Shown: piece by piece, positions 22,565 through 41,303 of the stretch
Layout: every line of letters starts with the position of its first letter
Numbering within the stretch: the first letter of the stretch is position 1
Assembly (NCBI RefSeq): GCF_014203605.1
Contig: NZ_JACHJJ010000001.1
Span: 62,001-126,000 of the forward strand
DNA: 64,000 nt
Direction: 5' to 3'
DNA from: Thiemannella venezuelensis
GTDB lineage: Bacteria; Actinomycetota; Actinomycetes; Streptosporangiales; Streptosporangiaceae
Program-made: the position numbers and the translations under genes
The notes under the pieces: model-generated
Told to the model about the DNA's origin: nothing
Seen by the model: only the letters and a program-made list of their open reading frames with translations
The model's database searches: none

Positions 22565-22618
22565 TGACCAGGGGAAACAGTCGGAGTCGGTTCCGGCGGC
22601 CATCGCCGGGACCCCCCG

Positions 22619-22638: not shown

Positions 22639-22643
22639 CGGCG

Positions 22644-24029: not shown

Positions 24030-24039
24030 CTTCTGCCGC

Positions 24040-24441: not shown

Positions 24442-24443
24442 AT

Positions 24444-24528: not shown

Positions 24529-24552
24529 TTCATTTCACATATGGGAGAAGCA

Positions 24553-24783: not shown

Positions 24784-24846
24784 AGCGGAGGGTCAGAGTT
24801 ATCCGGCGCGGAATCGGCCCCCACGCTGTGTGGGGGCCTGACCGTC

Positions 24847-26358: not shown

Positions 26359-26482
26359 AGGATGAAGTCCTTTCGCTTGGATCTACTTCATCTTCCGGCC
26401 CGGTTCCTCCCTCAAGGAGCCGGGCCTTCCGTCGTTCACGGTAGAGGACGACACAGCCACCTGCCTAATTCGGAAGGCATAT

Positions 26483-26520
26483 CCCAACTTGGAAGTTCTC
26501 GCGAGTTGGGTTTTACTCAC
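26483..26520. repeat. Inverted pair of GTTGGG boxes
   Basis: CCCAACTT (26483-26490) and GAGTTGGG (26513-26520) face each other upstream of the winged-helix gene; a further copy is at 26661-26670 (TAGTTGGGAT). Confidence 0.6.
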
Positions 26521-26698
26521 CACCGTGGAAAGAATTGCGCATCATGGACGCCGTGTGACACCCAGTCGACGGCCCATCGGTCGGGTAGGGCGGGTGGCCC
26601 GACTGGGTAATCACACGGCGGTCACCTTGAAAGAGCGTGCCGAGCCCGAGCGGCCGCATCTAGTTGGGATATTGGGGCCAGAGGACCGTCGCCCGTGG

Positions 26699-26844
26699 GG
26701 TGTCACCACGACTGAGGGATGTCACCATGACTGCGTTACTGCGACCGTGAGGTGTCACCGCGACTGGGCTAATAGAGATTTTCAAGATTTGAGAGATATT
26801 AGGGAGAGACTTCGTCTCTCTACGCCGCGACCTTCGGTCGCGGC
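26699..26844. other. Candidate replication or transfer origin: iterons and twin hairpins
   Basis: Three 16-bp direct repeats, GGTGTCACCACGACTG (26699), GATGTCACCATGACTG (26718) and GGTGTCACCGCGACTG (26751). An AT-rich 30 bp follows, then two adjacent hairpins with TTC loops: GAGAGAC/GTCTCTC (26804-26820) and GCCGCGACC/GGTCGCGGC (26824-26844). The rest of 26359-27464 shows no convincing gene. Confidence 0.5.
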
Positions 26845-27038
26845 GGAAACTCCAAACTCCAGGAGTCCGGAAGCCATGGACCATGGCCAGCAACTGCATG
26901 CTCCCGGCCCGATGCTTGGTCTCCGGTCAGATTTCCCGCTGCAGACCTCCGGCCCGAATATCCCTGCGCGGCCCTGAATGCCATTCTCCGGGCTGATCAC
27001 CTCGATTCGGTGGGGATTCCGCAGCCGGGGTCCCGTCG

Positions 27039-27069
27039 GCCCTCAGAAGCGATCTGAGGGCTTTATTTG
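27039..27069 (+). terminator. Intrinsic terminator without an evident gene
   Basis: GCCCTCAGA and TCTGAGGGC form a 9-bp stem around loop AGCGA, followed by TTTATTTG. The orientation fits a rightward transcript, yet no rightward gene precedes it. Confidence 0.7.
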
Positions 27070-27464
27070 ATCACCGGCCCCGAATCCCGCTCGGACGGAA
27101 ACGGCCTGCCGATGCGATCCCCGGCCGGATCCCGGTCACGGCCCAGGAGACCGGTTGCCGCTCCCAGCGCCTCGACGCTCTAGCGGCCGGAAAGTCGGCC
27201 CGGCATGTGGTCACCGCCGCGAGCACGCACAGACCACACCAGCGTTGGATACGATCACGGACGCGTCCCTCCACGAAATGCGGCCCCCGTGGAGACGGGG
27301 CGGAAAAATCGGCGCCCGACGGAACGCCCCTCGGATCCAAGGTCGGAACATGGCCCACAGCTCACCCGGACCCCAGTCGCCGACTGGAGCCCGCGGGCTG
27401 CGTTTCCGCAGGTCAAAAAATCGGCGGATTATTTGGCGGCCCTCCGGATCCCCTGGCTCTACAC

Positions 27465-27833
27465 CTACGTCAGACCCTGATCTCCACCGGCCGAAAGCAC
27501 CACATCGAATCTCACGTGAGCTTGGCCCGCCGCGTACAAGTTGACCAGCATCGAAAACACCGGAGCCCGATTTTTCGGCTCGGCGTAGCCTGGATAGAAG
27601 CGACCCTCGGCATCCTTCCAATCGTCATCGCTGTAGCTCATCGACAACTGTTGAGACCGGGGACCGAAGAGCTGGAGCGCCTGACTATCCAGCGTGATCC
27701 CCTTGGCCAGCATCTGCCGCACCATGATGCTGACCACCCGCGACAGCGGAAGGTCCAGCTCATTCTTGGCACGGGCCGAGGCCAACTCCAGTGCCTTCGG
27801 GTTGACCGAGTAGCTCGTCTTATGGCGCGTCAT
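27465..27833 (-). CDS. Small protein with ribbon-helix-helix-like N-terminus
   Basis: A 122-residue protein. The start MTRHKTSYSVNPKALELASARAKNELDLPLSRVVSIMVRQML resembles a ribbon-helix-helix DNA-binding fold. The C-terminal half (DDDWKDAEGRFYPGYAEPKNRAPVFSMLVNLY) is not recognised. It is the only convincing gene in 26.4-28.2 kb. Several GAAAAATCGGCG-like sequences lie around it and could be its sites, which is a guess. Confidence 0.6.
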   Translation of the reverse strand: MTRHKTSYSVNPKALELASARAKNELDLPLSRVVSIMVRQMLAKGITLDSQALQLFGPRSQQLSMSYSDDDWKDAEGRFYPGYAEPKNRAPVFSMLVNLYAAGQAHVRFDVVLSAGGDQGLT

Positions 27834-28196
27834 GGGCTCGGTTATATCGAAGCTGCCAAGATATGGATGAGTTGTCCGCGCCCTGTCCCCGATTCCCAGC
27901 GTAGGCGGTTACCGGGACCAGCCGAAAAATCGGCGCCGCTCGGAGCACTCTCCTCTACCTACATGAGGACCGGGACCACGAAGACATCCTGACCGCAGAC
28001 CATCCGCATGCCGTTCCGGCCTCCTGGTCTCGGCCGTCGGCACCTGGTGCCAGCGCCTACGCGGCCGCCTGGTCCCTCGCACCAACTACGCCGGACACCC
28101 GGTACCCCGTAGGTCAGGGCATGGGGGCAGACGAGCGCCCAAGGACTTGGGGCAGTGGCCGGATGGCGCTCCGCGCCGAGCTCGTCGCCGGAGCCG

Positions 28197-28238
28197 GAGA
28201 CGACGAGAGCGCCCACCCCACGAGGGACGAGCGCTCTC
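28197..28238 (-). terminator. Repeat-borne hairpin downstream of the 40-residue gene
   Basis: GAGAGCGC (28205-28212) pairs with GCGCTCTC (28231-28238). The first 30 bp (28197-28226) are repeated exactly at 29444-29473 next to the second recombinase gene. Confidence 0.5.
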
Positions 28239-28276
28239 AGCGGCCTTCGAGCTCTGCGACCTATCGGCGCGTCCGG

Positions 28277-28399
28277 CTACGGGAACTGGACCTCCATCCC
28301 GAGGGCGGACAGGACCAGGACCACGACGATGACGACGGTGGTCCGGAGGTACTGACCCCACTCACCGGGGATCTGGACGCAGAGGGTGAAGTTGCTCAT
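28277..28399 (-). CDS. 40-residue single-span membrane protein
   Basis: The reading begins MSNFTLCVQIPGEWGQYL, continues with a hydrophobic run TTVVIVVVLVLSALGM and ends EVQFP. GAGGAGGCGCCC directly before ATG 28399 is a strong ribosome-binding site. A hairpin follows the stop within 80 bp. Membrane insertion with one helix is predicted. The function is unknown; small single-span proteins on AICEs may serve spread, entry exclusion or toxicity, but nothing here decides. The flanks, 27834-28276 and 28400-29499, show no other supported gene. Confidence 0.6.
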   Translation of the reverse strand: MSNFTLCVQIPGEWGQYLRTTVVIVVVLVLSALGMEVQFP

Positions 28400-29443
28400 G
28401 GGCGCCTCCTCGGCGGATCGACATGATTACGGATGTGCCGGGCCTGTCCGAGGAGTCGGATTCTGCTCGCTACCCTGAGCGTGCGAAGAACAGGTGCGTA
28501 GCTGAGCCTCTGGCTCGGCTGGACACCTAGGGGAGGCCCGGTCCCTTTGGCCGAGGGGCCGGACTTCTCGATGCCCGAGGGAAACCATACGGGTGGGCAG
28601 CCGCGTACAAACGGAATCGAGAGCGCCGAGACTCGTTTTCCCTCCGGGATCAGGCGTTACTTCTTGTGCTCGAACGGGCTGCCATGCCGGTTCCGGGAAA
28701 ATGGCAACCTCCGCACCGTGCAGGTCGACGGCTAGAACTTCCGGCCGTAGAGGGTGAACGACCTGCTGGAGGAGGGTTCTCATGGACTTCGTCGCCGAGT
28801 AGCTGCTGAACGGCGGACAGTTCGGTGCAGTACCAGGGCCACGATGACGAGAGAGCCGCGAATGTCGCTGACAGGGCGGTCCCCCCATGAGAACGTCGAC
28901 CGTTGTTCGGCATGCCTCTGTCACCGAGATGAGTCGATCGGAGCAGACAGAGACCGCCGATCTCCATCTTCGCCGCCAGCCGACTTCTCCCCGTCGGCAG
29001 AGCATCTTGGTGTCGTTCATGGCCTTCGTTTCCGACGGTCGGAGCTGACGTCCTCCCGTACGTCACCCGTACGTGAAACTGGTGACGTACTCGGCTCTCG
29101 GCCGGAGGCGTGACGCGACCGAGCCGCGCCCCCTGGAGTTCTCCGAGCTGTCGCAGGCTGATCGACTCCCAGGCCCGGGACGGATTGCCCAGTCGCCGGC
29201 CTCTGCTCCGTAGGCGGATTTTCCCGCGTTTCCGCAGGTCAAAAATCTGCGGACCCCTGGCGGAGAAAATCGGCGCGGGTCTGGACATCTTGTCGGACCA
29301 AGGACAGAGGCACGGACGACCGCGCAGGGAGCAGGACTACGCCCACCGGCTCTCAGGTCCCGTTCTCGCCGTCCTGGTTGGAGGTCATGGGGTCTCCGCT
29401 CGTCGAGCAGCTCGCCCCCGAGGCCCTGGCCGTCGTGTAGTCA

Positions 29444-29473
29444 GAGACGACGAGAGCGCCCACCCCACGAGGG
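29444..29473. repeat. Second copy of the 30-bp repeat
   Basis: Identical over 30 bp to 28197-28226 and located 27 bp past the stop of the recombinase gene. GAGCG...CGCTC pairing continues into the flank. Confidence 0.85.
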
Positions 29474-29499
29474 CGGACGCTCCAGGCGGTCAGGCAGGA

Positions 29500-30579
29500 C
29501 TACAGGCCGGTCACCGGGTTGTCAGTCCAGCGGTCGCCCTCTTCCAGGTAGCCGAGCAGGGCCGTGGAGCCGTCGGCCCATCCGCCGTGGCGGCCGATTC
29601 TCTCCAGGGTGGCGCCCGCGCGCCGGGCGGCCGTGGCGAACCCGCGCCGCAGGGAGTGACCGGTCCAGCGGCCTTCGAGGCCAGCGGATGCGGCGATGCG
29701 GCCGACGATCTCCGCGACGGCCTCGGCCGTCATGCGGCCCTGGGGGTCGCCGATCACCTTGCCCTTCCGGGTCATCGGCGGGGCGATGCGGCCGTGCCGG
29801 TCGATGCGGACCAGGAGCGGCCCCGATGTACGGCCAGCCTCGCCCATGGCGCCCAGGAGAGCGCGCACGGCGCGCACGGGGCAGGTGGCCGGAATCCGGC
29901 CGTACGGAATGGCAACCTCGGTGAACTTCTTGATCTTCCGCCGGTACACCGTGACCAAGAGCCCGTCGGCCGTCTCCCGAACATCGACGATGTCCAGAGC
30001 CACCAGCTCGGAGATGCGCGCTGCGCAGGCGTAACCGAGCAGGAGCGCCACGGCGTCCCGCTTCCCGGCCAGGGTCGTCCGGTCCAAGGTCTCCAGCATC
30101 GTGCGCAGGGCGTCGGGCTCAGCCGCATCGGCCTTGCGGGTCTTGGCGGCCGGGTCCTTGGTCAGGGCCAGCCGCTCGCGGTAGCCGGACAGCACCTTCC
30201 GCGCGGCCTTGGTCTGGGGCGGCTCGACGTCGGCCGCGTTGTGCCTCGTGCGGATCGCGGCGAGGGACCGCTCGATGCTGGAGGGGGCCAGCGGACGGCC
30301 GGTCTTGGCCGAGGGGGTCACGGTCAGGTGGGCGACGTACTCGGTCACGGTCTGGGCCGTAGCCGGAAGCGCCACGCGACCGACCGACTCGCACCACACC
30401 GAGAACGTCTCCCAGTCCGAGGCGTACGCGCGTCGGGTCGACCCCGGGACGCCCGCGATGACGGCCACACGGGTGAACGGGCTCAGAGTGAGATCGGCGG
30501 CCGAGTGGGTCACCCGCGCGTCGACGGCTGGGACGACGACGGCCGAGGGAGTGAGGGGGGCGGGGACGAGCTCGGTCAT
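29500..30579 (-). CDS. Second tyrosine recombinase
   Basis: A 359-residue XerC/D-like recombinase, unrelated in detail to the tRNA-linked integrase. The N-terminal SAM-like domain (about 45-145) has STRRAYASDWETFSVWCES. Catalytic residues are Arg in AARISELVAL, His 308 and Arg 311 in HSLRRGF, His 331 in GRHGGW and Tyr 344 in LLGYLE, so it should be active. ATG 30579 follows CGGAG. It lies inside the AICE, away from both ends, and may have come with a separate small element or serve in DNA resolution. Confidence 0.85.
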   Translation of the reverse strand: MTELVPAPLTPSAVVVPAVDARVTHSAADLTLSPFTRVAVIAGVPGSTRRAYASDWETFSVWCESVGRVALPATAQTVTEYVAHLTVTPSAKTGRPLAPSSIERSLAAIRTRHNAADVEPPQTKAARKVLSGYRERLALTKDPAAKTRKADAAEPDALRTMLETLDRTTLAGKRDAVALLLGYACAARISELVALDIVDVRETADGLLVTVYRRKIKKFTEVAIPYGRIPATCPVRAVRALLGAMGEAGRTSGPLLVRIDRHGRIAPPMTRKGKVIGDPQGRMTAEAVAEIVGRIAASAGLEGRWTGHSLRRGFATAARRAGATLERIGRHGGWADGSTALLGYLEEGDRWTDNPVTGL

Positions 30580-30850
30580 GGGGGCTCCGGTCGATCGGTT
30601 CTGGCTCTTGAGAAGAAAGATTATCAAGAGCCAGACGAGATGAGATCATGTTTGGTCACGGTCAGGCGACGATGACGACCGGTCTCCAAGGATCGGCCCG
30701 GCCCACGAACCCGCCGTGATATCTGCCCCTCTCGTTCTCTCTCCTCATGCGCCCCCGCCACCGGTCGGCCCCCGTACCGCCCCGTTCCGGATCCTCCGCG
30801 AGACGCCCCGCCCATCCACGCCGCGTCTTCACCAGGGCATCGCCTCGTAG

Positions 30851-31066
30851 GTGAACGCTCCCGCCGTCAGCCAGCCACCCCAGTCCAGCCCGCACGGCGA
30901 CAGCGCCGAGCACGCGGCCTGGTGCGTCCCCGACTGCCCACAGCCTCGCCACGACCACGGCCCCGCCGTCGGTGGCCCCTGCTCGGCGACCCGACCACGG
31001 CGAGCACGTCACCCCGGGCCATCGGCCGTCGACTGGCGGACCCGGTGCCGCACCTCGTGGCGTTGA
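30851..31066 (+). CDS. Possible small Cys/His protein
   Basis: A 71-codon reading from GTG 30851 contains HAAWCVPDCPQPRHDHG...GGPC, a spacing seen in small zinc-binding actinobacterial proteins. The second half becomes Arg-rich and a different frame (GDPTTASTSPRAIGRRL) looks more protein-like, so a frameshift is possible. Support is weak. The rest of 30580-31236 shows no gene apart from the promoter at 31225. Confidence 0.25.
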   Translation: MNAPAVSQPPQSSPHGDSAEHAAWCVPDCPQPRHDHGPAVGGPCSATRPRRARHPGPSAVDWRTRCRTSWR

Positions 31067-31224
31067 CCCCCCCACCCTTAAACGGCCTTCTCGAAAGGCC
31101 CCCCGCCTGGTTTCTCAGGTAGGTCACGCCCTCATGGTCGAGACAGTGGCCTGAAATTCCCGAAGCCGGGACCAGTGCCATTGTGTAGGCGGTCACACAT
31201 TACCATTCAAGCGATGTACTTCAT

Positions 31225-31236
31225 TAATGTATAAGC
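31225..31236 (+). promoter_or_regulatory. Candidate leaderless promoter
   Basis: TAATGT (31225-31230) followed by 6 nt and ATG 31237, within an AT-rich 40 bp. Confidence 0.45.
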
Positions 31237-31506
31237 ATGAAGAACATCAAGGTATCCCCCGAGCGGTTCAAGCAGATCAGAGTAGAAAAGGGCGTCAGCG
31301 CATACGCCCTGGCTCGGATGATCGGTAGCAGCTCAGCGCAGATGTGGCGGATCGACAGCGGCCGTTTCACAACCAGCACACTTTTCCTCCAGCGCCTCGT
31401 TCCGGTCTTCGGCGAGGAGGCCGTGGCCTCCCTGCTTGTCGACGATGACCAGCGCGAACACTTCCTGAACGCCTGCGCCCGCCTGCGCGGCATCCAGCAG
31501 GTCTGA
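31237..31506 (+). CDS. Small helix-turn-helix protein
   Basis: An 89-residue XRE-like protein. RFKQIRVEKGVSAYALARMIGSSSAQMWRIDSGRF forms the helix-turn-helix, followed by a short helical tail. It precedes the HNH operon by 125 bp on the same strand and may regulate it. The start is ATG 31237 and no ribosome-binding site is present, in agreement with a leaderless transcript. Confidence 0.75.
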   Translation: MKNIKVSPERFKQIRVEKGVSAYALARMIGSSSAQMWRIDSGRFTTSTLFLQRLVPVFGEEAVASLLVDDDQREHFLNACARLRGIQQV

Positions 31507-31631
31507 CCCGATAACCCCTTCCAGAAGGAACGGTCCTACGGAGCTTACTCGAACACAAAAAGCGTCCAGGATCGAAAACTCCTGAACGCTCGACCTTTCC
31601 TCCTGGTCCTTTCCGGCTAGGAGAAAATCAA

Positions 31632-32237
31632 GTGAACAACGACAACAGGGTATCCCCCAGTAAGGATGCTCGAACCGTCTCCCAGTACCTCCGCGAGAGG
31701 ATCCTCCTCGGAACGGTGGACGGCAAGGCAATTACCCGGTTCGCCGAGAAAATCGACCTCGTCGAAAACGGCTGCTGGCGCTGGACCGCAGACGACAACA
31801 CGAACAACGGCTACGGTCGGTTCAGCCACAACGGCAAGCCCTGGGTCGCCCACCGCTGGGTCTGGGAGGCCATCAACGGCCCGGTGCCCGAGGGCCTCGT
31901 CCTCGACCACTTCCGGCACCCGCAGGACGGCTGCATCGGTCCCCTGTGCGTCAACCCGCACCACGTCAAGCCGGTGACCCAGCGGGAGAACGTTCTGCGC
32001 GGCAACAGCCCGAGCGCCCACAACGCCCGGAAAACGGTCTGCTCCAAGGGCCACCCGTACGACCGAAGGGACAGTCGCGGCCAGCGCCGCTGCTCCACCT
32101 GCCAGGCGGCCTACAGCCGCGCACGGTACGCGGCCAAGGTCGCCGCGCGGCGCTCGGCGGACCATGTCGGCCAGCTCCTGGCGCCTCTCCTGCCCTCCCC
32201 GGCCTCCAGGCCGCTCACCCTCGTGGAGACCTCGTGA
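31632..32237 (+). CDS. HNH endonuclease
   Basis: A 201-residue nuclease of the HNH_3 type common in phages and mobile elements. CWRWTADDNTNNGYGRF begins the fold; the core is AHRWVWEAINGPVPEGLVLDHF, then CIGPLCVNPHHVKPVTQRENVLRG with conserved Asn and His. A C-terminal CSKGHPY...RRCSTC zinc ribbon follows. GTG 31632 follows TAGGAG. Its stop overlaps the start of the next gene, making a translationally coupled operon. It may be a homing nuclease or a DNA-processing enzyme of the AICE. Confidence 0.88.
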   Translation: MNNDNRVSPSKDARTVSQYLRERILLGTVDGKAITRFAEKIDLVENGCWRWTADDNTNNGYGRFSHNGKPWVAHRWVWEAINGPVPEGLVLDHFRHPQDGCIGPLCVNPHHVKPVTQRENVLRGNSPSAHNARKTVCSKGHPYDRRDSRGQRRCSTCQAAYSRARYAAKVAARRSADHVGQLLAPLLPSPASRPLTLVETS

Positions 32238-32563
32238 TCGACTTCGACAACCTGAACGCCGTCTACCACGACCAGATGGACCGCACCGGCCGATTCTGGA
32301 ACATGTACAACACCGTCGTCGACGGCATCGGCGGGCACCTTCAGAACCAGATCGACGAGGCGTACGACTATCACCGCGCCCAGATGGCGCATGAGGACAC
32401 GATCATCCGCCACCAGTTCCAGTCCCGGCCCACGGCGTCGGGCCAGCCTCGCACGGGGCCGACCGCCTCGGCCGGGGCCACTCACACCACGTTCACGGGT
32501 GCGGCCCTCAGCCACACCGTGTCCGCAGCGTCCGCCCGTATGCCGCTGGCACGGCCGTCGTGA
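32234..32563 (+). CDS. Unknown protein in the HNH operon
   Basis: A 109-residue protein starting at GTG 32234, four bases inside the end of the HNH gene (GTGA overlap). The sequence is helical and polar in the first 65 residues (FDNLNAVYHDQMDRTGRFW, NQIDEAYDYHRAQMAHEDT) and Ser/Thr/Ala-rich after that. No family is recognised. Coupling to both neighbours suggests a joint function. Confidence 0.6.
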   Translation: MIDFDNLNAVYHDQMDRTGRFWNMYNTVVDGIGGHLQNQIDEAYDYHRAQMAHEDTIIRHQFQSRPTASGQPRTGPTASAGATHTTFTGAALSHTVSAASARMPLARPS

Positions 32564-32850
32564 GGAATCGGCCGACCCTGGAGCGGCTCGGCCTGCTCCT
32601 GGGCGATATGGGCAACGCCCTCATCCGGCGGTCGTTCACGTCCCGGTCCCTCGACGCCTTGGCGCACATCATCGAGGGCCGGGAGGACGCGGCCGACGAG
32701 ATCGTGAGGTACCGGCTGACCTTCGCCCAAGCCGAGGACCTCAAGCGGTTCATCGTCGACCTGAGCCGCCTCCTGGACGCCAGGTTGCTGGACCAGCTCC
32801 TCCGTGAGTCGGAGCACGTCGTCCAGAGGCCGGACGGCCCCGCCGTATGA
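32560..32850 (+). CDS. Unknown protein in the HNH operon
   Basis: A 96-residue protein from GTG 32560, overlapping the previous stop by GTGA. It is predicted to be all-helical (LERLGLLLGDMGNALIRRSF, EDLKRFIVDLSRLLDARLL). No family is recognised. It is the last convincing gene of the HNH operon. The following 336 bp hold an inverted pair of GTTGGG boxes and no supported gene. Confidence 0.6.
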   Translation: MRNRPTLERLGLLLGDMGNALIRRSFTSRSLDALAHIIEGREDAADEIVRYRLTFAQAEDLKRFIVDLSRLLDARLLDQLLRESEHVVQRPDGPAV

Positions 32851-32932
32851 AGCAACCGGGAGCCTGTTGTCAACATCCACTTACTATGTCGCCAAATTGG
32901 CTTCCGGCTGTTTCGCGGCAATCTCGCCGATT

Positions 32933-32979
32933 CGAGTTGGGACCCAAGTGCGTGGAACGCGGAACAGGATCCCAACTCG
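32933..32979. promoter_or_regulatory. Inverted pair of GAGTTGGGA boxes
   Basis: CGAGTTGGGA (32933-32942) and its inverted counterpart ending CCCAACTCG (32969-32979) lie in the gap between the HNH operon and the convergent regulator cluster. They match boxes at the xre, xis and winged-helix genes. Confidence 0.6.
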
Positions 32980-33186
32980 CGACCCAGGCCCCGGCGCCTG
33001 CTGATACGACGCAACACACCGCCATGCATGCCTGTGACCTGCGGATTCTCTGCCCAGGCAAGTCGCCGGCTCACCCCCGCCGGTCGGACTCTCACTGGAG
33101 GCGACAGTAACTGTTTCGGCTTCCGCAGGCCGTGAATCACGCTGAGCGCGGCGGGCACCGGGTGACGCCGATGCCCGCCGCGCGGT

Positions 33187-33486
33187 CTACCGAGCCTGGC
33201 CCATGAGCAGGCTGATCCACCACACTTCGGTCTCTCGCTGCGGCCACGGACCCGCGTAGTGGATGGCGTCCAGGTGCCGGACGGTGCGCCGGATCACCCG
33301 ATGGCCGCCCAAGGCGCACAGCTCGTATGTCGTGGATCGGCACGGGCAGGTGTGTTCTAGGACGCGCCGCACATCACCGGGCGCGGTCGCATTCCACCGC
33401 AGTTGCCTGGCCCCGGGCCGGGGCGTGATGGGATGCGGGGAGATCCCCGGACAGGGCCAGAGCACGGCGCTGTCCTGACTATCCAT
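33187..33486 (-). CDS. Small actinobacterial Cys-containing protein
   Basis: A 99-residue protein from ATG 33486 (MDSQDSAVLWPCPG). The C-terminal half, CPCRSTTYELCALGGHRVIRRT...WPQRETEVWWISLLMGQAR, looks like a small family found next to XRE/DUF5753 regulators in streptomycetes and relatives. It is the last gene of a leftward cluster starting at 35534. The function is unknown. Confidence 0.6.
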   Translation of the reverse strand: MDSQDSAVLWPCPGISPHPITPRPGARQLRWNATAPGDVRRVLEHTCPCRSTTYELCALGGHRVIRRTVRHLDAIHYAGPWPQRETEVWWISLLMGQAR

Positions 33487-33524
33487 CGGCCTGGTCGGCC
33501 TGGTCGGCCTGATCGGGCTGACCG

Positions 33525-33722
33525 TCACCGATACCACGACGCCTTGATCCGGTTCGCGATGGCCAACAGTTCCAGGTCCTCGAACGACTCGGAGGACAGG
33601 ACCTGCTTGCACCCAGCCGCGAGCGCCTCGGTGTTGAGCGGGTGGCGCAGCCGGGCCTGGAAGCCGTTGCCGTCTTCGCTCACGTCGTACTCGTAGATCC
33701 CGAAGGACTCGTCACCGTCCAT
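33525..33722 (-). CDS. Small acidic protein of unknown function
   Basis: A 65-residue protein beginning MDGDESFGIYEYDVSEDG, acidic at the N-terminus with a helical second half (LSSESFEDLELLAIANRIK). It lies 47 bp downstream of the XRE/DUF5753 gene on the same strand, in the position where such regulators usually have a small partner, commonly DUF397. I cannot assign it to DUF397. Confidence 0.55.
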   Translation of the reverse strand: MDGDESFGIYEYDVSEDGNGFQARLRHPLNTEALAAGCKQVLSSESFEDLELLAIANRIKASWYR

Positions 33723-33769
33723 GACCAGGACGGTAGAAACGGCTGGTCGTCGCTCTCAACGAAGTTGCC

Positions 33770-34603
33770 TCAAATTGCCGTGAGTGCTGCCGCGATCAGC
33801 TCCCGGGCGGGTGCCCCGTAGACGGCTGCGTGCTGCATCTGCTCGAACGTCCGGCCGTACAGAGCGATCTCACGGGGCTGCGTGATGGTCAACTGGGCGC
33901 TGACGGTCTCCACCCGAACCGTCATGTCGTCGAACATCAAGAACCCCTCGGCGGGCCAGACCTGTCGGACCGCGCCTGCCGGGACGATACCGAGGCTGAC
34001 CCGTTGCAGGCTCATCGTGGCCAGCAACCGGTCGAACTGGCCCGCCATGACCTCCCGGTCCCCCACCCGCGTCCGCAAGGCCTGCTCTTCGATGACAACC
34101 AGGAAGCGGCGGTCGCCGCTGTAGAGCACCCGCTGGCGGTCCATGCGCGCCTCGACCGCCTGGTCCACGTCATCGGGGAGGTCGAGGAAGGCACGGACCT
34201 TCCGCAGGATGGCGGCGGCGTAGTCGGCGGTCTGGAACAGGCCCGGGATCAGGAACGGGTGGTAGATCCGGAAGAGGTGGGCCTGCTCGTACAGCGGGAC
34301 CGACGCCTCCTGGCGCCGTCGCAGGCCAGTGCGGAGCTGGCGCTTCCACTCGATGTAGGCCGACTCGATGCCGCGCAGCGTGGCGATCAGATCCGGGACC
34401 TGGCCCTCGGCGTTGCAGTGCAGGCACCAGGCCCGCACGTCGTCTTCAGAGGCGTTGCGCACGCCCCGTTCAATCCGGGTGACCTTCGAGGGCTGCCAGC
34501 CGACGAGTGCGGCCAGCGCCCGCCCGGTGAGGTTCGCGTCCTTGCGGATCTCCCGGAGACGGGCGCCGAATGCCTCCTTGGCCTGCTGGATCTGGCTGGA
34601 CAC
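33770..34603 (-). CDS. XRE regulator with DUF5753 domain
   Basis: A 277-residue protein. The helix-turn-helix is at about 12-65 (LREIRKDANLTGRALAALVGWQPSKVTRIERGVRN). A DUF5753 domain follows from about 90 (YEQAHLFRIYHPFLIPGLFQTADYAAAIL, MDRQRVL, LVVIEEQALRTRVGD). Such proteins accompany small DUF397-type partners in WhiJ/Scr1-like systems with toxin-antitoxin-like behaviour. It lies 3 bp downstream of the DUF6879 gene, so they share an operon. Confidence 0.88.
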   Translation of the reverse strand: MSSQIQQAKEAFGARLREIRKDANLTGRALAALVGWQPSKVTRIERGVRNASEDDVRAWCLHCNAEGQVPDLIATLRGIESAYIEWKRQLRTGLRRRQEASVPLYEQAHLFRIYHPFLIPGLFQTADYAAAILRKVRAFLDLPDDVDQAVEARMDRQRVLYSGDRRFLVVIEEQALRTRVGDREVMAGQFDRLLATMSLQRVSLGIVPAGAVRQVWPAEGFLMFDDMTVRVETVSAQLTITQPREIALYGRTFEQMQHAAVYGAPARELIAAALTAI

Positions 34604-34606
34604 CGA

Positions 34607-35152
34607 TCAGGCCGTGACCGGTTCGTACTCGGCGTGCGGGGTCGCCAACTCCCACAGCAGGTCCCGAACTCGGGCGCACGCGGCCACGACATCCGGGTCG
34701 GTGATCAGTTCCTTGCCCCGGGATCGGCCGTCGTCGTGGAAGTGGTTGACGACCACCTGTGCGTCGTCGAGGAGCCAGAAGTCGTTGCCCTCGATGGGGA
34801 AGGTGAGATCGGCCGGGAGCCGGTGGCGGGATAGCCACCGGACGTCCTCGCCCGCGCCGACGTTGTGCGGGGTGTCGTGCCACTCGAAGGCGATGTAGTC
34901 ACTGATCGGCTCGGTCACCACTCGTAGGCGACGGATCGTCTTGCCCGCCTGGGTGGCCGCGCGGACCTTGTCGGTCCAGTCGCTGAACCAGGCCGCGACC
35001 TCCTCGTACGGCTGGCGCTCCCCGGCCAGCCACCGGCCGAACCGGGTGGCCTCTCCAGCGACCCCGTAGGAGTCGCGCAGTTCCAGGTGGAAGGCGTCCT
35101 TGTGGAAGCCGTCGAACAGCTCGCGCCACTCGTCAGCGGCCAGCCACCGCAT
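34607..35152 (-). CDS. DUF6879-family protein
   Basis: A 181-residue protein: EWRELFDGFHKDAFHLELRDSYG at the N-terminus and FEWHDTPHNVGAGEDVRWLSR in the middle are typical of DUF6879, which is found almost always beside XRE/DUF5753 regulators. The biochemical role is unknown; it may be the effector the regulator controls. Its start overlaps the upstream gene at 35133 by 20 bp. Confidence 0.82.
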   Translation of the reverse strand: MRWLAADEWRELFDGFHKDAFHLELRDSYGVAGEATRFGRWLAGERQPYEEVAAWFSDWTDKVRAATQAGKTIRRLRVVTEPISDYIAFEWHDTPHNVGAGEDVRWLSRHRLPADLTFPIEGNDFWLLDDAQVVVNHFHDDGRSRGKELITDPDVVAACARVRDLLWELATPHAEYEPVTA

Positions 35153-35534
35153 ACTCCTCCTTCATGACCGTCCGGAGTGCCCTGGGCACCTCGACCACGG
35201 TCTCATGGTCGGGGATGTCCATGTGCGCGAGCGCCTCGGCGTCGCTGACGGCCTGGCCCTTGACGATGTAGGTGTCCCGGTCGGTGCGCAGGATCACCGG
35301 CGCGGCCTGACCGTCGTCGGGCGCGTCGAGCTGGACGCTGTTGGCCAGACGCGACATCAACGGCCGGGGCACCTCCACGCAGGTTTCCCCGAATGCGAGA
35401 TCGAGCTGAGCGAGAACGGCGGGATCGGAAACCTTCCAGCCCTGAACGAGGTAGGTGCCCCGGTCAGTGTCGTAGAGGCTCGGACACTCGTCCTTCTCCG
35501 AGCCAGGGTCCTTGCCGAGGAACGTGACGCGCAT
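35133..35534 (-). CDS. Internally duplicated protein of the XRE/DUF6879 cluster
   Basis: A 133-residue protein with two repeats of about 45 residues: DTDRGTYLVQGWKVSD...CVEVPRPLM and RTDRDTYIVKGQAVSD...VVEVPRALR. A short N-terminal MRVTFLGKDPGS precedes them. It is the first gene of the leftward cluster 35534-33187 and overlaps DUF6879 by 20 bp. Similar proteins accompany XRE regulators in actinobacteria; their function is unknown. Confidence 0.75.
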   Translation of the reverse strand: MRVTFLGKDPGSEKDECPSLYDTDRGTYLVQGWKVSDPAVLAQLDLAFGETCVEVPRPLMSRLANSVQLDAPDDGQAAPVILRTDRDTYIVKGQAVSDAEALAHMDIPDHETVVEVPRALRTVMKEEYAVAGR

Positions 35535-35626
35535 GACCGCCTCCAGGTTGCCGGAAATTGCCGCTGGACTGGATGCTCCGCGCGAACAGAACGACTGTCA
35601 AGTGCTGAACGACAGAGGTTGCGTCA

Positions 35627-36052
35627 TCACTCGCGGTGGAAGATCGCCCTGACCATGGCGATGAAGAAGACGGCGACAACGCAAGTGCCACAGCTCACAA
35701 AGATCGCCAAGCCGGGACTTCCGTCGGTGCTGTCCAGATATTTCTCCCAGGACTGAACGGTCATCACAACGCCGCCGACCAGGGCCATGAAAAATAAGAC
35801 AGCTGCGCGTACGTTCTCGGCGTGGTCGTCAGCCTCGGCAGCAGCACGAATGACAGGTGCCATTTTCTGCTCCATCGGCACGGGGAACATCATTGGGGTG
35901 CCGTCCGCGTGGAAAACCGGCTGCCCGTCCGGGCCGATCGCCTGCTGCCACATCGGGGTTTCAGCCGCTTCGAGCGCGGCTTCGCGCATGTAGGGGTCGT
36001 GAGCGTAGGAATTGCAGCAGTTGCAGTAAGGGTCGTACCCGTGGGGGTGCAT
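35627..36052 (-). CDS. Membrane protein with Cys-rich N-terminus
   Basis: A 141-residue protein from ATG 36052. The N-terminus MHPHGYDPYCNCCNSYAHDPY is rich in His, Cys and Tyr, followed by a soluble helical part. Two membrane spans (VRAAVLFFMALVGGVVMTV and LAIFVSCGTCVVAVFFIAMV) form the C-terminus. It sits between the translocase gene and the regulator cluster, all leftward. No family is recognised; a role in transfer or spread is inferred only from position. Confidence 0.6.
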   Translation of the reverse strand: MHPHGYDPYCNCCNSYAHDPYMREAALEAAETPMWQQAIGPDGQPVFHADGTPMMFPVPMEQKMAPVIRAAAEADDHAENVRAAVLFFMALVGGVVMTVQSWEKYLDSTDGSPGLAIFVSCGTCVVAVFFIAMVRAIFHRE

Positions 36053-36252
36053 GGCGCGGATCCTAGCCGTCCAGATCGGGGGACAAAACCTCAAACATGA
36101 CCTCTGGCCAAGCGCGTGCCCTCGATAGGCATAGCACCCGCGATAGCGCCCGATCCAGTCCGTGACCTGGGGCCTATCCATCTAGCGGCCCACGCGCAGG
36201 GGGCCTGAAACCGGGCCGTTCCCGGGCTTCGATGCCCCTGCCGCTGATAGGA

Positions 36253-38415
36253 CTACCTCACCCGCCGGATCTTCTTCGGCACTGCCTCGACCACGTCGCC
36301 GCGAGTGATGCCGCGCCGATTCACGCCCCGGCCGTCGACCGTCCGGTAGACCTGCCCGACCTTGACGCCGTACGGCTTGAGCACCGCCGTCAGGTGCGCA
36401 GTCTTGGCCTCGTCCGCCTGGTCGGCCCACGGGCCGTAGACCTCCGGCCGCAGCTCGGCCAGCCGGTCGACGACCACGCTGTTCCAGACCTTGTCCTCCC
36501 CGGCCGGGACCACGGTGAGGATGTCGGCCAGCAGGTCGTAGGAGACAGGCTCGACCGGAACCTGCCCGACCGCGTAGCCGGACAAGGTCCCCGCGGCCTC
36601 TCTCAGAGCACGGGCACGGTCAGCGATTCGGCCCGACGTCGGGTTGTCCAGGTAGTACGAGCGGACGATCCTGGCCTCGGTGCTGACCCCGAGCAGGTAG
36701 CCGATGCCGAGGTCCTGGTCCGTGAACGTCGTGGCCCGGATCCCGTTCCTGTAGGCGCTGGTCCCGAGGACCATGTCGTTTTCGACCTGCCCGGCGACCT
36801 TCAGGCAGAAGCGCACCAGGACGTTGGCGGACACACCGGTCGGCATCGAGTCCTTGTCCGGCCGCTGGGTGGCCAGCAGCAGGATCACGCCCAGGGCGCG
36901 GCCCCGCTTGATGATGGCCGTACACAGCTTGGCGGCCTCCTCGCCGAACTCCTCGTGGGAGAACAGTTCCTGCACTTCATCTGCGGCGAAGACCAGCGGG
37001 TGAAGGCCCAGCGCCTTCTGGGCCGCCAACTCCGGCGTGACCTTGTTCTCCGGGCAGACGTCCTCGGGCAGGCCGTCGATGACGTCGGCCCGCCGCTCCA
37101 GATCCCGGTAGACCTCGCGCAGCGAGACCACGCACGCCTCGATCGTCGAGTCCTTGGCCCCGCTGGCGTAGTGGTGTGAGACCTTGGCCAGTGGCTTCAG
37201 ATCCCCGGTGCCCTTCAGCTCGAACACCCGCAGCTCGGCCGACGGGTCCAGCGCGGCGCCCAGGAGCAGCACCCGCAGGGCGAAGGTCTTTCCGAAGCCG
37301 GGCATCGCGCCGATGAGCAGGTTGCGGTACATCAACGGCACAGAGACCATCCGGCCCCGCTGATCGGTGCCGAACGGAATCGGCTGGAACAGGTCCACCT
37401 GACCGGTCCTGGTCATCGGCCACAGCGGCTGACGTGCCTTGTTCATGTCCTGGTCCCCGACCCACAGCACGAGCCGCCCGGGGTGGATGTGGGCTGCCGG
37501 CTCGGGCCACACGCACCCGAGAGGACGACGCAGAGCCGAGGCGAGCCGCGCCCGCTTGTCCATGACGTCGGTGGCCGTGACCCCGAACGGAAGGTCGACG
37601 TCGGCCCGCCAGCCGGGACCGTCGCGGGTGATGGGGGCCGGGAAGTTGATCCCGTCGCCGCCCTTGCCGACGGCCTTGTTCAGCTCGGCGATCCCCAGGG
37701 CGCCCAGGGCGCGAAGGACGAGGTCGCTGGTCAGCTTCTGGGCCTGGGTCGGGATCACGGCCCGGTCGAACACCCGCTTGTCGGCAGGAGTGCCCACAGC
37801 CCCGAGCAGCGAGACCAGTCCGGCGAGCGCCGCCCACTGGCTGTAGGTGGGGGCCGTTTCCATCGCCAGAACCGCCCCGAGGGCCAGGACCACGGCGGCC
37901 GACACGGACACGATCAGCCGGTTACGGACCCGCACGTCGTGGGCCTTGGACAGCTTCAGGTACTGCTCGGCGTCCCGACCTGCGGCGGCCAGCTTCCGCA
38001 CCGGCCTGCCCTCGGTGTCGAAGGTCCACGACACGACCGCCTTGACGGCCTTCCCGGCGCCGCGCGGAGAGCGGGCCGCCAGACGGCCGAGGTACTTCGG
38101 GGACCGGGTCAGGTGGTAGGCGCCCACGTAGGCGTAGTGGTTGACCAGCCAGCCCATGACGGCCAGGGCCTCGGCCTTGGACCGCAGCCACACCGGGACG
38201 ATCGGCAGCCGGTTCTTCGTGCGCTCCTCGATCTCGGTCAGCCAGTCGTGATCCGCCGGGCTCGGCTGGTCGACGAGCACGACCGGCGAAGCGCTCAGGT
38301 CGTCGCTGACGGTCTCGGCCTCCGGGGCGGTCGGGACGGTCTCGTGATCGTCTACGAGCTCCTCTACGACGCCCTGGGGGCTGCCCGGAGTGATCTCGAT
38401 CTCGGCGGCGGTCAT
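36253..38415 (-). CDS. FtsK/SpoIIIE-type conjugative DNA translocase (TraB-like)
   Basis: A 720-residue motor protein. Two membrane spans lie near residues 175-230, followed by a RecA-like ATPase with Walker A IGAMPGFGKT (Lys 376) and Walker B LVFAADE (Asp 479-Glu 480), then ATQRPDKDSMPTGVSANV. A small winged domain at the C-terminus fits the DNA-recognition part of TraB. By family it moves double-stranded DNA between mycelia in AICE conjugation. Its start overlaps the stop of the upstream gene (ATGA), indicating coupling. Confidence 0.92.
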   Translation of the reverse strand: MTAAEIEITPGSPQGVVEELVDDHETVPTAPEAETVSDDLSASPVVLVDQPSPADHDWLTEIEERTKNRLPIVPVWLRSKAEALAVMGWLVNHYAYVGAYHLTRSPKYLGRLAARSPRGAGKAVKAVVSWTFDTEGRPVRKLAAAGRDAEQYLKLSKAHDVRVRNRLIVSVSAAVVLALGAVLAMETAPTYSQWAALAGLVSLLGAVGTPADKRVFDRAVIPTQAQKLTSDLVLRALGALGIAELNKAVGKGGDGINFPAPITRDGPGWRADVDLPFGVTATDVMDKRARLASALRRPLGCVWPEPAAHIHPGRLVLWVGDQDMNKARQPLWPMTRTGQVDLFQPIPFGTDQRGRMVSVPLMYRNLLIGAMPGFGKTFALRVLLLGAALDPSAELRVFELKGTGDLKPLAKVSHHYASGAKDSTIEACVVSLREVYRDLERRADVIDGLPEDVCPENKVTPELAAQKALGLHPLVFAADEVQELFSHEEFGEEAAKLCTAIIKRGRALGVILLLATQRPDKDSMPTGVSANVLVRFCLKVAGQVENDMVLGTSAYRNGIRATTFTDQDLGIGYLLGVSTEARIVRSYYLDNPTSGRIADRARALREAAGTLSGYAVGQVPVEPVSYDLLADILTVVPAGEDKVWNSVVVDRLAELRPEVYGPWADQADEAKTAHLTAVLKPYGVKVGQVYRTVDGRGVNRRGITRGDVVEAVPKKIRRVR

Positions 38416-39383
38416 CGGGTGCCTCCAGCGATGCCAGCGTCACAGAAGGGGTGTCGGGGGTCGCGCCCGCATCCGGCGCAGCAGGTGCCGTCAGCGACGT
38501 CGGCGGCCAGCTTCCGGACCACGTCGGAGAAGCGGCGCAGGTGCTCGTAGTCGCCGAAATTCGGGTCATCGGCGAACTTGTGGCAGTACTCGGCCAGGGC
38601 CAGGGGCGCGTGCTCGGTCAGGGCCTCGGCGATGCGGGCCAGCAGTCGCGTCCGCAGCCAGGCAGGGGCCTTGCGGTAGTGGTCGGGCATCTGGCCCAGG
38701 ACCTCGCCAGCAAGCCAGGAAATCTCTTCCTGACTCGCCGAAGGCGTCGTGGCGGCGTCTCGCGCGGTACGGACCGTGAGCGCGCCTACGGCGCGAAGAG
38801 GATCGGTGGTCTTCTTCTTGGTCTTCTTCTGGTCCTCTGTTCTTCTTAAGGGGACGGATTTTCCGTCGTTGGTTCCGACCTGCGGCGATGCACCGTTCTC
38901 GCTGGTCACGACCTCTGACGGATTTTCCGTCGTAGGTGTGATCTGGGCATCAGGGGTGTTGTCGCTGGTTGCGGCCTCCGCCGGATTTTCCGTCGTAGGT
39001 GCGGGCCGGTCGTCACCGCCAGGGACGGAAAATCCGTCGTTGGTTCCGACCTGGGCAGACGTCGCCGAAGTGGTCCACGGGTCGGACAGGACGTACTCGA
39101 CGACGCTGAGCTTGCCGCTGGCGTCCCGCTTGCGCTCACGGCGCAGATATCCGGTCGTCTCCAGCTCGCGGATTCCCGCGCGTACGGAGTCGCGGCCGTC
39201 CGGGGCCGCGCCGATGATGGCCTTCTCCGACACTCGGAAGCCGACCGCGTGGGAGGCCAGCCAGGCGAGGATGCCCCGGCTCTTCCACGTCAGGCGCTTG
39301 TCGCGGATCCACCGATTGCTGAGCATCGTGAAGTTGTCGGCAGGGAGTTCGGCACGCCGGAATCCGGCGCTACGGTGGGACAC
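38412..39383 (-). CDS. Winged-helix protein with repeated linker, AICE replication module
   Basis: A 323-residue protein. The N-terminal domain (about 10-100) is a replication-initiator-like winged helix: MLSNRWIRDKRLTWKSRGILAWLASH, GRDSVRAGIRELETTGYLRRER. A 75-residue Thr/Asn/Pro-rich linker contains two TNDGxSVP and two TTENPxE units. The C-terminal helical domain ends in a CCAGCGRDPRHPFC zinc-like motif. The GTG start follows GGAGAG. It is coupled to the translocase gene and probably takes part in replication or its control. Confidence 0.7.
   Translation of the reverse strand: MSHRSAGFRRAELPADNFTMLSNRWIRDKRLTWKSRGILAWLASHAVGFRVSEKAIIGAAPDGRDSVRAGIRELETTGYLRRERKRDASGKLSVVEYVLSDPWTTSATSAQVGTNDGFSVPGGDDRPAPTTENPAEAATSDNTPDAQITPTTENPSEVVTSENGASPQVGTNDGKSVPLRRTEDQKKTKKKTTDPLRAVGALTVRTARDAATTPSASQEEISWLAGEVLGQMPDHYRKAPAWLRTRLLARIAEALTEHAPLALAEYCHKFADDPNFGDYEHLRRFSDVVRKLAADVADGTCCAGCGRDPRHPFCDAGIAGGTR
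38853..39038. repeat. Four palindromic repeats in a coding linker
   Basis: GACGGATTTTCCGTC or close variants occur at 38853-38867, 38917-38931, 38980-38994 and inverted at 39024-39038. The outer two also share the flank GTTGGTTCCGACCTG, and the inner two share CGTAGGTG. Confidence 0.85.
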
Positions 39384-39453
39384 AGGTCTCTCCTGGTTAC
39401 AGCAGGAAGTGGACTCAGGCCCCGGACCCGGTGTTGGCGCACCGGCCGGGGTC
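39384..39453 (-). promoter_or_regulatory. Structured leader, copy 1
   Basis: On the minus strand a long hairpin (39418-39453, loop CGCCAA flanked by GGTG and CACC) is followed by GTAACCAGGAGAG and the GTG start. It is paralogous to the leader at 40779-40850. The remainder of 39454-39647 has several GGGGACG units and no gene. Confidence 0.6.
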
Positions 39454-39647
39454 GCTTGCTTGTTGGGGACGGAAGCGGGGACGAGCCCGCAGACCGTCAG
39501 GCGGACAAGAACGGGGACGGCGGTAAGGCACGGCCCCCAGCGCTCACGGGGACGAGATCGGGACGGCTCCCCAGCACCGGGGACGGACCGGCTATCCGAG
39601 CGGCCCGTGGCGGCCCCGCCCGAGGACAGGACCGTCCCCGGCGCCGG

Positions 39648-40778
39648 TTACCGGCTGGCGGCCGAAGCGGTCAGTGTCTCGCCCGCTGTCCCCTGCTTGA
39701 GCAGGGCGAGCAGCTTTGAGGCCCGCCCGGTCGAAATCGGCTGACCGAGGTCCCGCAGGCCAGCAACGAGGTTGTCGCGAGTAAGGGGACGGTCCTGCTC
39801 GGCCAGCTTCTCGACGACCCTCGTCCCCACAGGGAGCAGGTCGGCCACGTCCGAAGACGAAGACCTCGTCCGGCCCGGCTTGCGGGGACAGTCCCCGTCG
39901 ATGGCGCGGAGCGCGGGGCGGACCGGCTCGGGACGGTCGTCCTTATCCCCGGCCTCGTCCGTGTCCACCGAGCGGCCGTCGTCCGCCAGCTCGACCCCCT
40001 CGTCCACGAGGACGGTCTCCTCGTCGGCTTCCTCCGCCAAGACCTTGCCGGTCGGGACCAGATCGGCCGGGACGAGCTCCCCGAGCTTGTACAGGGCACG
40101 CTCTCGGCGGGTGGCCTTCCAGCGCCACAGCCGCCCGTACCGGTCCTGGAGATCGGTCTTGGCCAAGACGCGGTCACGCTCCCGGCCCAGCGCCAGCGGG
40201 TAGGACCGGATCTCCCACAGGACCATCCGGCGCCACAGGGAGAACGTCGTCATGGGCGCCAGCAGCCACCGCGACTTGCGGATGCTGTCCATGTGGGTCT
40301 CGGACGACAGTCCAGCGAACCGCCGGAAGACGTGGGCCGCGACCTCCACGGCGATGACCCAGAGCATGGGCAGCATGGCGTGAGCGACGACGGCGAACGG
40401 GTCGTACTCCCCGGCCACGTTGAGGTAGATGGTCGCAGCAGTCAGCGCCCACGGAACGAACCGCAGGATCTTGACCCGCATGTCCAGCCGGGCAAGCACG
40501 ATGTCCAGGGCCGAGAAGGCGAGGATGCCGAGGTCGATGCCGAGCGGTACGGTCCACGCCAGGGCGCCGAAGAACGGCTGCGCGGCCTCGGTGACCTTGG
40601 CGAAGCTGTTGACGAAGCCGATCAGGCCGAGCGCGAAGACCACCGCACCGACGGCGGCAACGGTCGCGTACTCGCCGGAGGTCAGGGAGCGGGGCGGCTC
40701 GGTGGAAGCCGGGGCGCCGATCACGGGCGTCCGGTCGTCACCGGGCGTCAGTACGGTCCCGGAGATACGGTTGTGCAT
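39648..40778 (-). CDS. DUF2637 membrane protein, SpdA-like
   Basis: A 376-residue protein. Four membrane spans in residues 35-165 carry the DUF2637 pattern (GFVNSFAKVTEAAQPFFGALAWTVPLGIDLGI, IYLNVAGEYDP, HAMLPMLWVIAVEVAAHV). A cytosolic part follows with an acidic linker and a helix-turn-helix-like C-terminus (RDNLVAGLRDLGQPISTGRASKLL). Such proteins occur in Streptomyces plasmid and AICE transfer regions and are tied to intramycelial spread. ATG 40778 follows GGAGAGGACCC. Confidence 0.85.
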   Translation of the reverse strand: MHNRISGTVLTPGDDRTPVIGAPASTEPPRSLTSGEYATVAAVGAVVFALGLIGFVNSFAKVTEAAQPFFGALAWTVPLGIDLGILAFSALDIVLARLDMRVKILRFVPWALTAATIYLNVAGEYDPFAVVAHAMLPMLWVIAVEVAAHVFRRFAGLSSETHMDSIRKSRWLLAPMTTFSLWRRMVLWEIRSYPLALGRERDRVLAKTDLQDRYGRLWRWKATRRERALYKLGELVPADLVPTGKVLAEEADEETVLVDEGVELADDGRSVDTDEAGDKDDRPEPVRPALRAIDGDCPRKPGRTRSSSSDVADLLPVGTRVVEKLAEQDRPLTRDNLVAGLRDLGQPISTGRASKLLALLKQGTAGETLTASAASR

Positions 40779-40850
40779 GGGTCCTCTCCTGGTTACGTCA
40801 GGGTGATGGATCAAGGCCCTGAGCAGGTGTTCGCGCACCCGCTTGGGGCC
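40779..40850 (-). promoter_or_regulatory. Structured leader, copy 2
   Basis: The hairpin at 40815-40850 (loop CGCGAA between GGTG and CACC) and GTAACCAGGAGAG directly before ATG 40778 parallel copy 1, with base changes on both sides of the stem that keep the pairing. Confidence 0.6.
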
Positions 40851-40901
40851 GTTTTCGCTTGACGTCATGCCTGGTGAGAGGACGGCGGACCGCGTGCCCA
40901 G

Positions 40902-40921
40902 ATGGGAACACGATGGGAACA
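40902..40921. repeat. Right arm-type integrase repeats
   Basis: Two direct ATGGGAACA copies at 40902 and 40913, 11 bp apart, in the same orientation and spacing as the pair beside attL. Confidence 0.6.
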
Positions 40922-41035
40922 ACAGGTCCGAATACAGTCGTGATCAGCCAACGCCAGCCACCCATGGAGAAGGCGCTTGAGCTGCTGGTTTGTGGTTGCC
41001 CAACGCCACCCGACGGCAGCAAACGATCTTTCAGG

Positions 41036-41095
41036 TGTCTTGAAAACCGCTAGGGCCGGTGACGGTCCTCGTGGGTTCGAATCCCACGCTCTCCG
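41036..41095. other. attR, orphan 3' half of tRNA-Ser
   Basis: A 60-bp repeat from the anticodon loop to the tRNA end. Four differences from attL lie in the variable arm, whose stem GGCCG/CGGTC still pairs. It is not a gene because the 5' half is missing. Confidence 0.88.
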
Positions 41096-41303
41096 CCGAG
41101 CACGCGAAACGGCGTCTGACCAGGGGTTCTGCCCCGGTGAGGCGCCGTTGATCGTTTCCGGGGCATGCAGCCGTGTGCCGCTCTGAGCCGCCGCATGCCG
41201 CCGGCCGTGGGATAGGGATGGTGCCGTACAGCCGGAGACACGAAGGCTCCAGGCCGACTGGAGATCTGTTCCCGAACCCTCGCGTCCCGATCCCCTGTCG
41301 CCG

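What the first reader, a model, noticed from the sequence alone, without database searches (positions are those of the whole stretch)
39384..40850. Paralogous, covarying hairpin leaders before two AICE genes
The 38412-39383 and 39648-40778 genes share the leader layout: 36-nt hairpin with GGTG-CGCxAA-CACC tip, about 25 nt, then GTAACCAGGAGAG and the start codon. The stems differ in sequence but keep pairing (CCGG...CCGG versus AGC...GCT). Covariation points to selection on RNA structure, perhaps an attenuator or protein-binding RNA that coordinates replication and spread genes.
Basis: partly seen in the sequence, partly recalled or inferred. Interest (0 to 1): 0.65.

Follow-up and report, generated by a model that had tools for sequence, protein, structure and literature searches.

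The report
Paired hairpin leaders of mobile genes
Two genes of an integrated mobile element each start with the same kind of two-hairpin RNA leader, a kind found here before many phage and mobile-element genes, which probably shields and tunes the ribosome's landing site rather than linking the two genes.

Summary
Genes 38412-39383 (phage-type replication initiator) and 39648-40778 (DUF2637 membrane protein) of an 18.5-kb AICE each carry a strong hairpin P1, then GTAACCAGGAGAG before the start codon.

P1 is a real covarying structure. The arms of 92 separate leaders pair far better with each other than with other leaders' arms (0 of 2000 shuffles), and the SD hairpin covaries too. P1's base lies 20-37 nt before the start codon. 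No Rfam family matches. The same leader stands before many phage genes, often HNH endonucleases, and before other AICE genes.

The invariant GGTG-CGCNAA-CACC tip is an impression from two copies. In related leaders the loop is CTNGAA, CTCCAA or, inverted, TTNGCG. Loops of the two genes differ within one element, so a shared loop-reading regulator coordinating them is not supported. No U-tract follows P1, so it is not an ordinary terminator.

Best reading: a portable, cis-acting leader. P1 insulates the ribosome-binding region from upstream RNA, and P2 damps initiation. Structure is shown; function is inferred. It is an uncatalogued member of a known kind.

The parts
39420..39451 (-). P1 hairpin of the leader of the replication-initiator gene; loop CGCCAA at 39434-39439
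   Evidence: fold, covariance-model hit 39412-39459, 34.6 bits, covariation in relatives
39390..39408 (-). P2 hairpin TTCCTG-CTGTAAC-CAGGAG holding the Shine-Dalgarno sequence
   Evidence: fold; SD unpaired probability 0.14; covarying SD hairpin in phage relatives
39388..39400 (-). shared sequence GTAACCAGGAGAG with the SD sequence
   Evidence: exact match
38412..39383 (-). 323-aa replication-initiation protein (winged-helix type), the gene behind leader 1
   Evidence: PHROG replication initiation families, best E 2e-14
40815..40850 (-). P1 hairpin of the leader of the DUF2637 gene; loop CGCGAA at 40830-40835
   Evidence: fold, z -4.7; covariance-model hit 40808-40855, 37.1 bits
40788..40802 (-). 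P2 hairpin CCTG-ACGTAAC-CAGG, pairing with part of the SD sequence
   Evidence: fold; SD unpaired probability 0.24
40784..40796 (-). shared sequence GTAACCAGGAGAG with the SD sequence
   Evidence: exact match
39648..40778 (-). 376-aa DUF2637 membrane protein, the gene behind leader 2
   Evidence: Pfam PF10935, E 2.7e-20
22535..41096 (.). AICE: 30-bp direct repeats 22535-22564 (3' end of tRNA-Ser) and 41067-41096, with integrase at 22644-24029, FtsK/TraB-type protein at 36253-38415, replication initiator and DUF2637 protein
   Evidence: repeat, tRNA, families

Best explanation
Each gene carries its own copy of a portable two-hairpin mRNA leader that acts in cis. P1, a strong hairpin whose base lies about 35 nt before the start codon here and 20-37 nt in relatives, takes up the RNA just upstream of the ribosome footprint. 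This walls the ribosome-binding region off from whatever sequence lies in front (structural insulation or standby-site boundary). P2, a weak hairpin that pairs part of the SD sequence, damps initiation, so translation is set by the leader itself. Shown: P1 and P2 are predicted folds that covary across relatives and keep their spacing to the start codon. Inferred: that their effect is on translation, that P1 insulates, and that P2 represses.
For: P1 arms pair with their own partner far better than with swapped partners: -13.8 against -9.8 kcal/mol over 92 leaders, 0 of 2000 shuffles. In the alignment, 171 cells change on both sides against 104 +/- 7 in shuffles. AICE leaders alone give -18.9 against -14.8, 1 of 5000. 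The SD hairpin covaries as well: -5.2 against -4.1, 0 of 2000. P1's 3' end lies at a median of 28.5 nt (5-95%: 20-37) before the start codon. SD accessibility is 0.50 with P1 present, higher than in control genes with native upstream RNA of similar length (0.40, p 0.003), and the same as when P1 and everything upstream is cut away (0.50). In about half of the sampled cases P1 begins within 45 nt of the stop codon of a co-directional open frame. Led genes are mobile or foreign genes (HNH and endonuclease VII, Bro-N, KilA-N, methylase, integrase, replication proteins), with no HNH family among 39 next-downstream genes. Both loop sequence and loop orientation can change while the structure stays.
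Against: Pure insulation does not explain why loops are non-random: CGCNAA and CTNGAA loops give 61 and 25 structured leaders in truncated lists, two scrambled loops give 2 and 0. In the two window leaders the SD is more occluded (0.14 and 0.24) than the average. The accessibility difference is small and computed, not measured. No expression data were available.
Confidence: 0.42

Rival explanations
1. P1 is the binding site of a protein or other trans-acting factor (ribosomal, host or phage) that reads the C[G/T]NNAA-type loop and regulates translation of the led genes.
For: Loop preference is strong: CGCNAA and CTNGAA far exceed scrambled loops. In a lambdoid leader the loop CGCGAA is kept although the stem tip changed from GTG/CAC to CTG/CAG (Lambda_4C10).
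Against: Loops vary between orthologous leaders and between the two leaders of one element, and the loop can be inverted to TTNGCG. Such a factor would have to exist across phages of very different hosts. No linked gene for one was seen.
Confidence: 0.2
2. P1 is an mRNA-stabilising or processing hairpin: it forms the 5' end of the transcript (own promoter or endonuclease cut) and protects the gene's mRNA from decay.
For: P1 often follows the previous gene's stop closely. The 8 nt before P1 are A-rich (0.50-0.53 against 0.19-0.32), which could be a single-stranded cut site or a -10 element.
Against: No conserved -35 or clear promoter was seen. This does not explain the SD hairpin or the constraint on the distance to the start codon.
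Confidence: 0.2
3. P1 is a transcription terminator or attenuator, in the sense direction or facing the opposite strand.
For: The hairpin is strong and GC-rich. A-rich sequence before P1 reads as a U-tract on the other strand, and in L046 the hairpin stands at the place where lambdoid phages have the oop terminator (oop from general knowledge).
Against: No U-tract in the sense direction (T fraction 0.18-0.20, at or below background). Little room for a promoter between P1 and the start codon. An antisense terminator gives no reason for the spacing to the start codon.
Confidence: 0.1
4. The inverted repeat works as DNA: a recognition site for a DNA-binding protein or a single-strand hairpin, with RNA pairing as a by-product.
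For: Loop inversion (CGCNAA to TTNGCG) is tolerated, as expected for a near-symmetric DNA site.
Against: Outer stems keep pairing with different sequences, which a DNA operator does not need. The position is constrained relative to start codon and strand. The SD hairpin also covaries.
Confidence: 0.08

Closest known systems
RNA hairpins that sequester the ribosome-binding site of phage homing endonucleases (I-TevI, SegB, Aeh1 mobE; reviewed in PMC3014915)
   Same: A hairpin at the translation start of mobile endonuclease genes pairs the SD region; HNH genes are frequent among the genes led here.
   Different: The T4-type cases rest on an inhibitory structure over the SD or start codon. Here the SD hairpin is weak and a separate strong hairpin P1 stands upstream. 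The led genes also include replication and DUF2637 genes of AICEs.
[quoted passage not shown]
   Same: A conserved SD-containing sequence just before start codons, with an inverted repeat upstream in about half of the cases, before many unrelated non-structural genes.
   Different: Different sequence (GGGATAGGAGCCC); the authors found little support for RNA pairing of the ESAS repeats, whereas P1 covaries.
Ribosome standby sites with an upstream hairpin (PMC3936740)
   Same: A single hairpin just upstream of the SD region sets ribosome access; proximal and distal single-stranded lengths and hairpin height are the determinants.
   Different: Standby sites are a general physical description with designed test sequences, not a conserved family with preferred loops.

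Membership tests
Any Rfam 15 family | Match at the family's gathering score | tested here: not met
   Window, leaders and 12 phage loci: no match at the leaders; best sub-threshold hit in 39300-41000 is radC at 14.3 bits (threshold 40) and not on a leader
SAS/ESAS of cluster K phages | GGGATAGGAGCCC within two mismatches before the start codon | tested here: not met
   No match within 2 mismatches on the minus strand of 39384-40900; best has 3 mismatches
SAS/ESAS of cluster K phages | Inverted repeat without support for RNA pairing | tested here: not met
   P1 arms covary
RBS-sequestering hairpin of phage homing endonucleases | SD paired in a hairpin | tested here: met
   P2 in both leaders; covarying in phages
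RBS-sequestering hairpin of phage homing endonucleases | Hairpin lowers translation in cells | not testable with these tools
   Needs reporter assays
RBS-sequestering hairpin of phage homing endonucleases | Led gene is a homing endonuclease | tested here: not met
   Window genes are a replication initiator and a DUF2637 protein, although many phage relatives lead HNH genes
Intrinsic terminator or attenuator | U-tract directly 3' of the hairpin | tested here: not met
   T fraction 0.18-0.20 after P1, longest T run mostly 1; none in the window leaders
AICE | tRNA-flanking direct repeats, tyrosine integrase, FtsK/TraB-type transfer protein, replication protein | tested here: met
   30-bp repeats; integrase, FtsK-like and replication families

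The most novel reading that the evidence does not exclude
The C[G/T]NNAA-capped P1 hairpin is read by one widely conserved factor (the ribosome itself or a universal RNA-binding protein), making this a so far unrecognised translational control element shared by phages and integrative elements of different bacterial phyla.
Probability: 0.15. Interest if true: 0.8.

Novelty: new member of a known kind. Interest (0 to 1): 0.5.

Why it matters
Mobile genes land behind arbitrary sequence and must control their own translation. A recurrent, structure-conserved leader shared by phages and integrative elements would show one way they do it, give a handle for finding such genes, and offer natural insulated ribosome-binding sites.

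Tried and rejected
An invariant GGTG-CGCNAA-CACC core: this impression came from searching with it. Orthologous leaders and a survey with a free six-base loop show other loops, so the covariance model R1 is biased to that tip.

A coordinating regulator that reads the loop: rejected because paired leaders carry different loops.

A sense terminator: no U-tract. A conserved own promoter: only A-rich sequence, no -35.

An Ala-codon (GCN) or tRNA-anticodon reading of the loop, and a GTG-CGC-TAA mini-ORF: rejected because the loop changes in other leaders and can be inverted.

SAS/ESAS membership: sequence not met.

Literature by motif sequence: one irrelevant primer hit. An AICE/SpdB leader search gave no papers.

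One protein-family call failed on coordinates, one paper search on syntax.

The weak third window hit 35267-35316 (17.8 bits) was taken as chance.

Full report
Observation. Reading the minus strand, both genes have the layout described. Leader 1 (before the 38412-39383 gene): CCCCGGCCGGTG-CGCCAA-CACCGGgtCCGGGG, linker, then GTAACCAGGAGAG-ACCT-GTG. Leader 2 (before the 39648-40778 gene): GGCCCcaAGCGGGTG-CGCGAA-CACCTGCTcaGGGCC, linker, then GTAACCAGGAGAG-GACCC-ATG. The exact tip occurs at only three places in the 8.18-Mb genome, and these are two of them. The full 13-base SD string is exact in both, and of the five AACCAGGAGAG copies in the genome only these two lie in such leaders. Alone, leader 2's hairpin is clearly more stable than shuffles (z -4.7), leader 1's only moderately (z -1.9).

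A second hairpin. In both leaders the fold puts the SD sequence into a small hairpin, TTCCTG-CTGTAAC-CAGGAG and CCTG-ACGTAAC-CAGG. The computed probability that the SD is unpaired is 0.14 and 0.24. In related AICE leaders CCTG recurs about seven bases before CAGG while the bases between differ.

Where it lies. The element is an AICE of about 18.5 kb: 30-bp direct repeats at 22535-22564 (3' end of tRNA-Ser) and 41067-41096, an integrase, an FtsK/TraB-type protein, a phage-type replication initiator and a DUF2637 membrane protein.

Relatives. The tip followed by an SD occurs in at least 120 viral contigs (list truncated) and in Streptosporangium, Planomonospora, Jiangella, Phycicoccus and Pseudonocardia genomes. 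Some contigs are enterobacterial lambdoid phages, where the hairpin stands before or at the start of the replication gene O. In 299 genomes of the window's family the tip is several-fold commoner than the backwards pattern (by inspection of the table). A covariance model built from 77 leaders finds matches in 106 of 201 genomes of the order, and in the window only the two leaders.

Covariation. Swapping the 3' arms of P1 among 92 separate leaders weakens pairing from -13.77 to -9.84 kcal/mol on average; no shuffle of 2000 reached the real value. In an ungapped alignment, 171 cells carry changes on both sides of a pair, against 104 +/- 7 in shuffles, and sliding the partner by one base lowers the score. 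The SD hairpin passes the same swap test, -5.20 against -4.09, 0 of 2000. AICE leaders taken alone (9 independent ones, not chosen by the CGCNAA loop) give -18.9 against -14.8, 1 of 5000. Streptomyces phage VWB has a 13-bp hairpin with an unrelated loop between the previous stop codon and its DUF2637 gene.

The tip is not invariant. Orthologues of the replication initiator and the DUF2637 gene keep the leader but change the loop: CGCCAA, CTCCAA, CTCGAA, CTATCAA, CTACCAA, CGACCAA, TTAGCG, TTAGAG and TTGGCG. Not all orthologues keep it; many DUF2637 homologues have no such leader. L225 and L227 are nearly identical in their flanks, yet one has CGCCAA and the other its reverse complement TTGGCG. 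L092 and L304 show the same inversion before one phage gene. A survey with a free six-base loop gave, among about 22 structured leaders, CGCNAA, CT[C/G]GAA, AGCCAA, inverted forms and others (structured leaders picked by eye). Loops are still not random: in viral contigs CGCNAA and CTNGAA gave 61 and 25 structured, ORF-led sites in truncated lists, inverted TTNGCG 17, and two scrambled loops 2 and 0.

Position and genes. P1's 3' end lies 20-37 nt (5-95%) before the start codon, median 28.5. About half of the sampled P1s begin within 45 nt of the stop codon of a co-directional open frame. Of 62 led phage proteins, many match HNH, endonuclease VII, Bro-N, KilA-N, methylase, integrase and replication families; no HNH family appears among 39 next-downstream genes. 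The HNH counts are per family and can overlap.

Mechanism. No U-tract follows P1 in the sense direction, so a normal terminator is unlikely. The SD of P1-led genes is as accessible with P1 as without any upstream RNA (0.50 and 0.50), and more accessible than the SD of control genes with native upstream RNA of similar length (0.40, p 0.003). This fits P1 as an insulator that keeps upstream RNA from folding onto the ribosome-binding region, with P2 as a local damper. In physical terms this is a standby-site arrangement (PMC3936740). The loop preference is the main fact this does not explain, and keeps a loop-reading factor in play. The two leaders of one element carry different loops in the window (CGCCAA, CGCGAA), in G071 (CGCCAA, CTGGAA), in G006 (TTGGCG, CTGGAA) and in L226 (CGCCAA, CAGCGAA). 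In the last three the second gene is not recognisably DUF2637. A shared loop-specific regulator coordinating the two genes is therefore not supported.

Known relatives. Phage homing endonucleases such as I-TevI, SegB and mobE have RNA hairpins over their ribosome-binding sites (PMC3014915), a functional analogue of P2. SAS/ESAS of cluster K mycobacteriophages (PMC3203893) share the layout but not the sequence, and their repeats show little support for RNA pairing. No Rfam family matches, and the motif sequence was not found in the paper library apart from an unrelated primer. Most subscription papers are not in that library, so earlier description cannot be excluded.

Limits. Most phage examples were found by searching with the tip and an SD, so loop frequencies are biased; the covariation tests concern the outer stem and the SD hairpin, which were not part of the search pattern apart from AGGAG. 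Hosts of the viral contigs were not assigned. In some lambdoid phages the hairpin falls inside the annotated O gene (Lambda_4C10), so coding constraint may contribute there. All functional statements are inferences.

Noticed in passing
39465-39639: Five GGGGACG copies and one inverted copy within 175 bp, just upstream of leader 1 and the replication-initiator gene; 41 copies in the whole 64-kb window. Possible iterons of a replication origin.
   Followed up: partly
L225 and L227; L092 and L304: The hairpin loop is inverted (CGCCAA to TTGGCG) between nearly identical leaders or before the same gene, as if the tip flips by strand switching between the arms.
   Followed up: partly
L003 1485-1522 (own genome, contig C3); L170, L171, L176, L192 and others: Chromosomal genes for SnoaL-like proteins and FAD monooxygenases carry a GGTG-CGCCAA-CACC hairpin 85-130 nt upstream of the start codon, with a long leader, in many genomes of the family.
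   Followed up: partly
L412, L413: AICE-type leaders also precede small DUF6907 proteins.
   Followed up: no
upstream of P1 in phage leaders: The eight bases before P1 are strongly A-rich in both AT-rich and GC-rich phages. On the opposite strand this is a U-tract behind the hairpin.
   Followed up: partly
24847-26358: 503-aa minus-strand ORF in the AICE with no Pfam or PHROG match.
   Followed up: no
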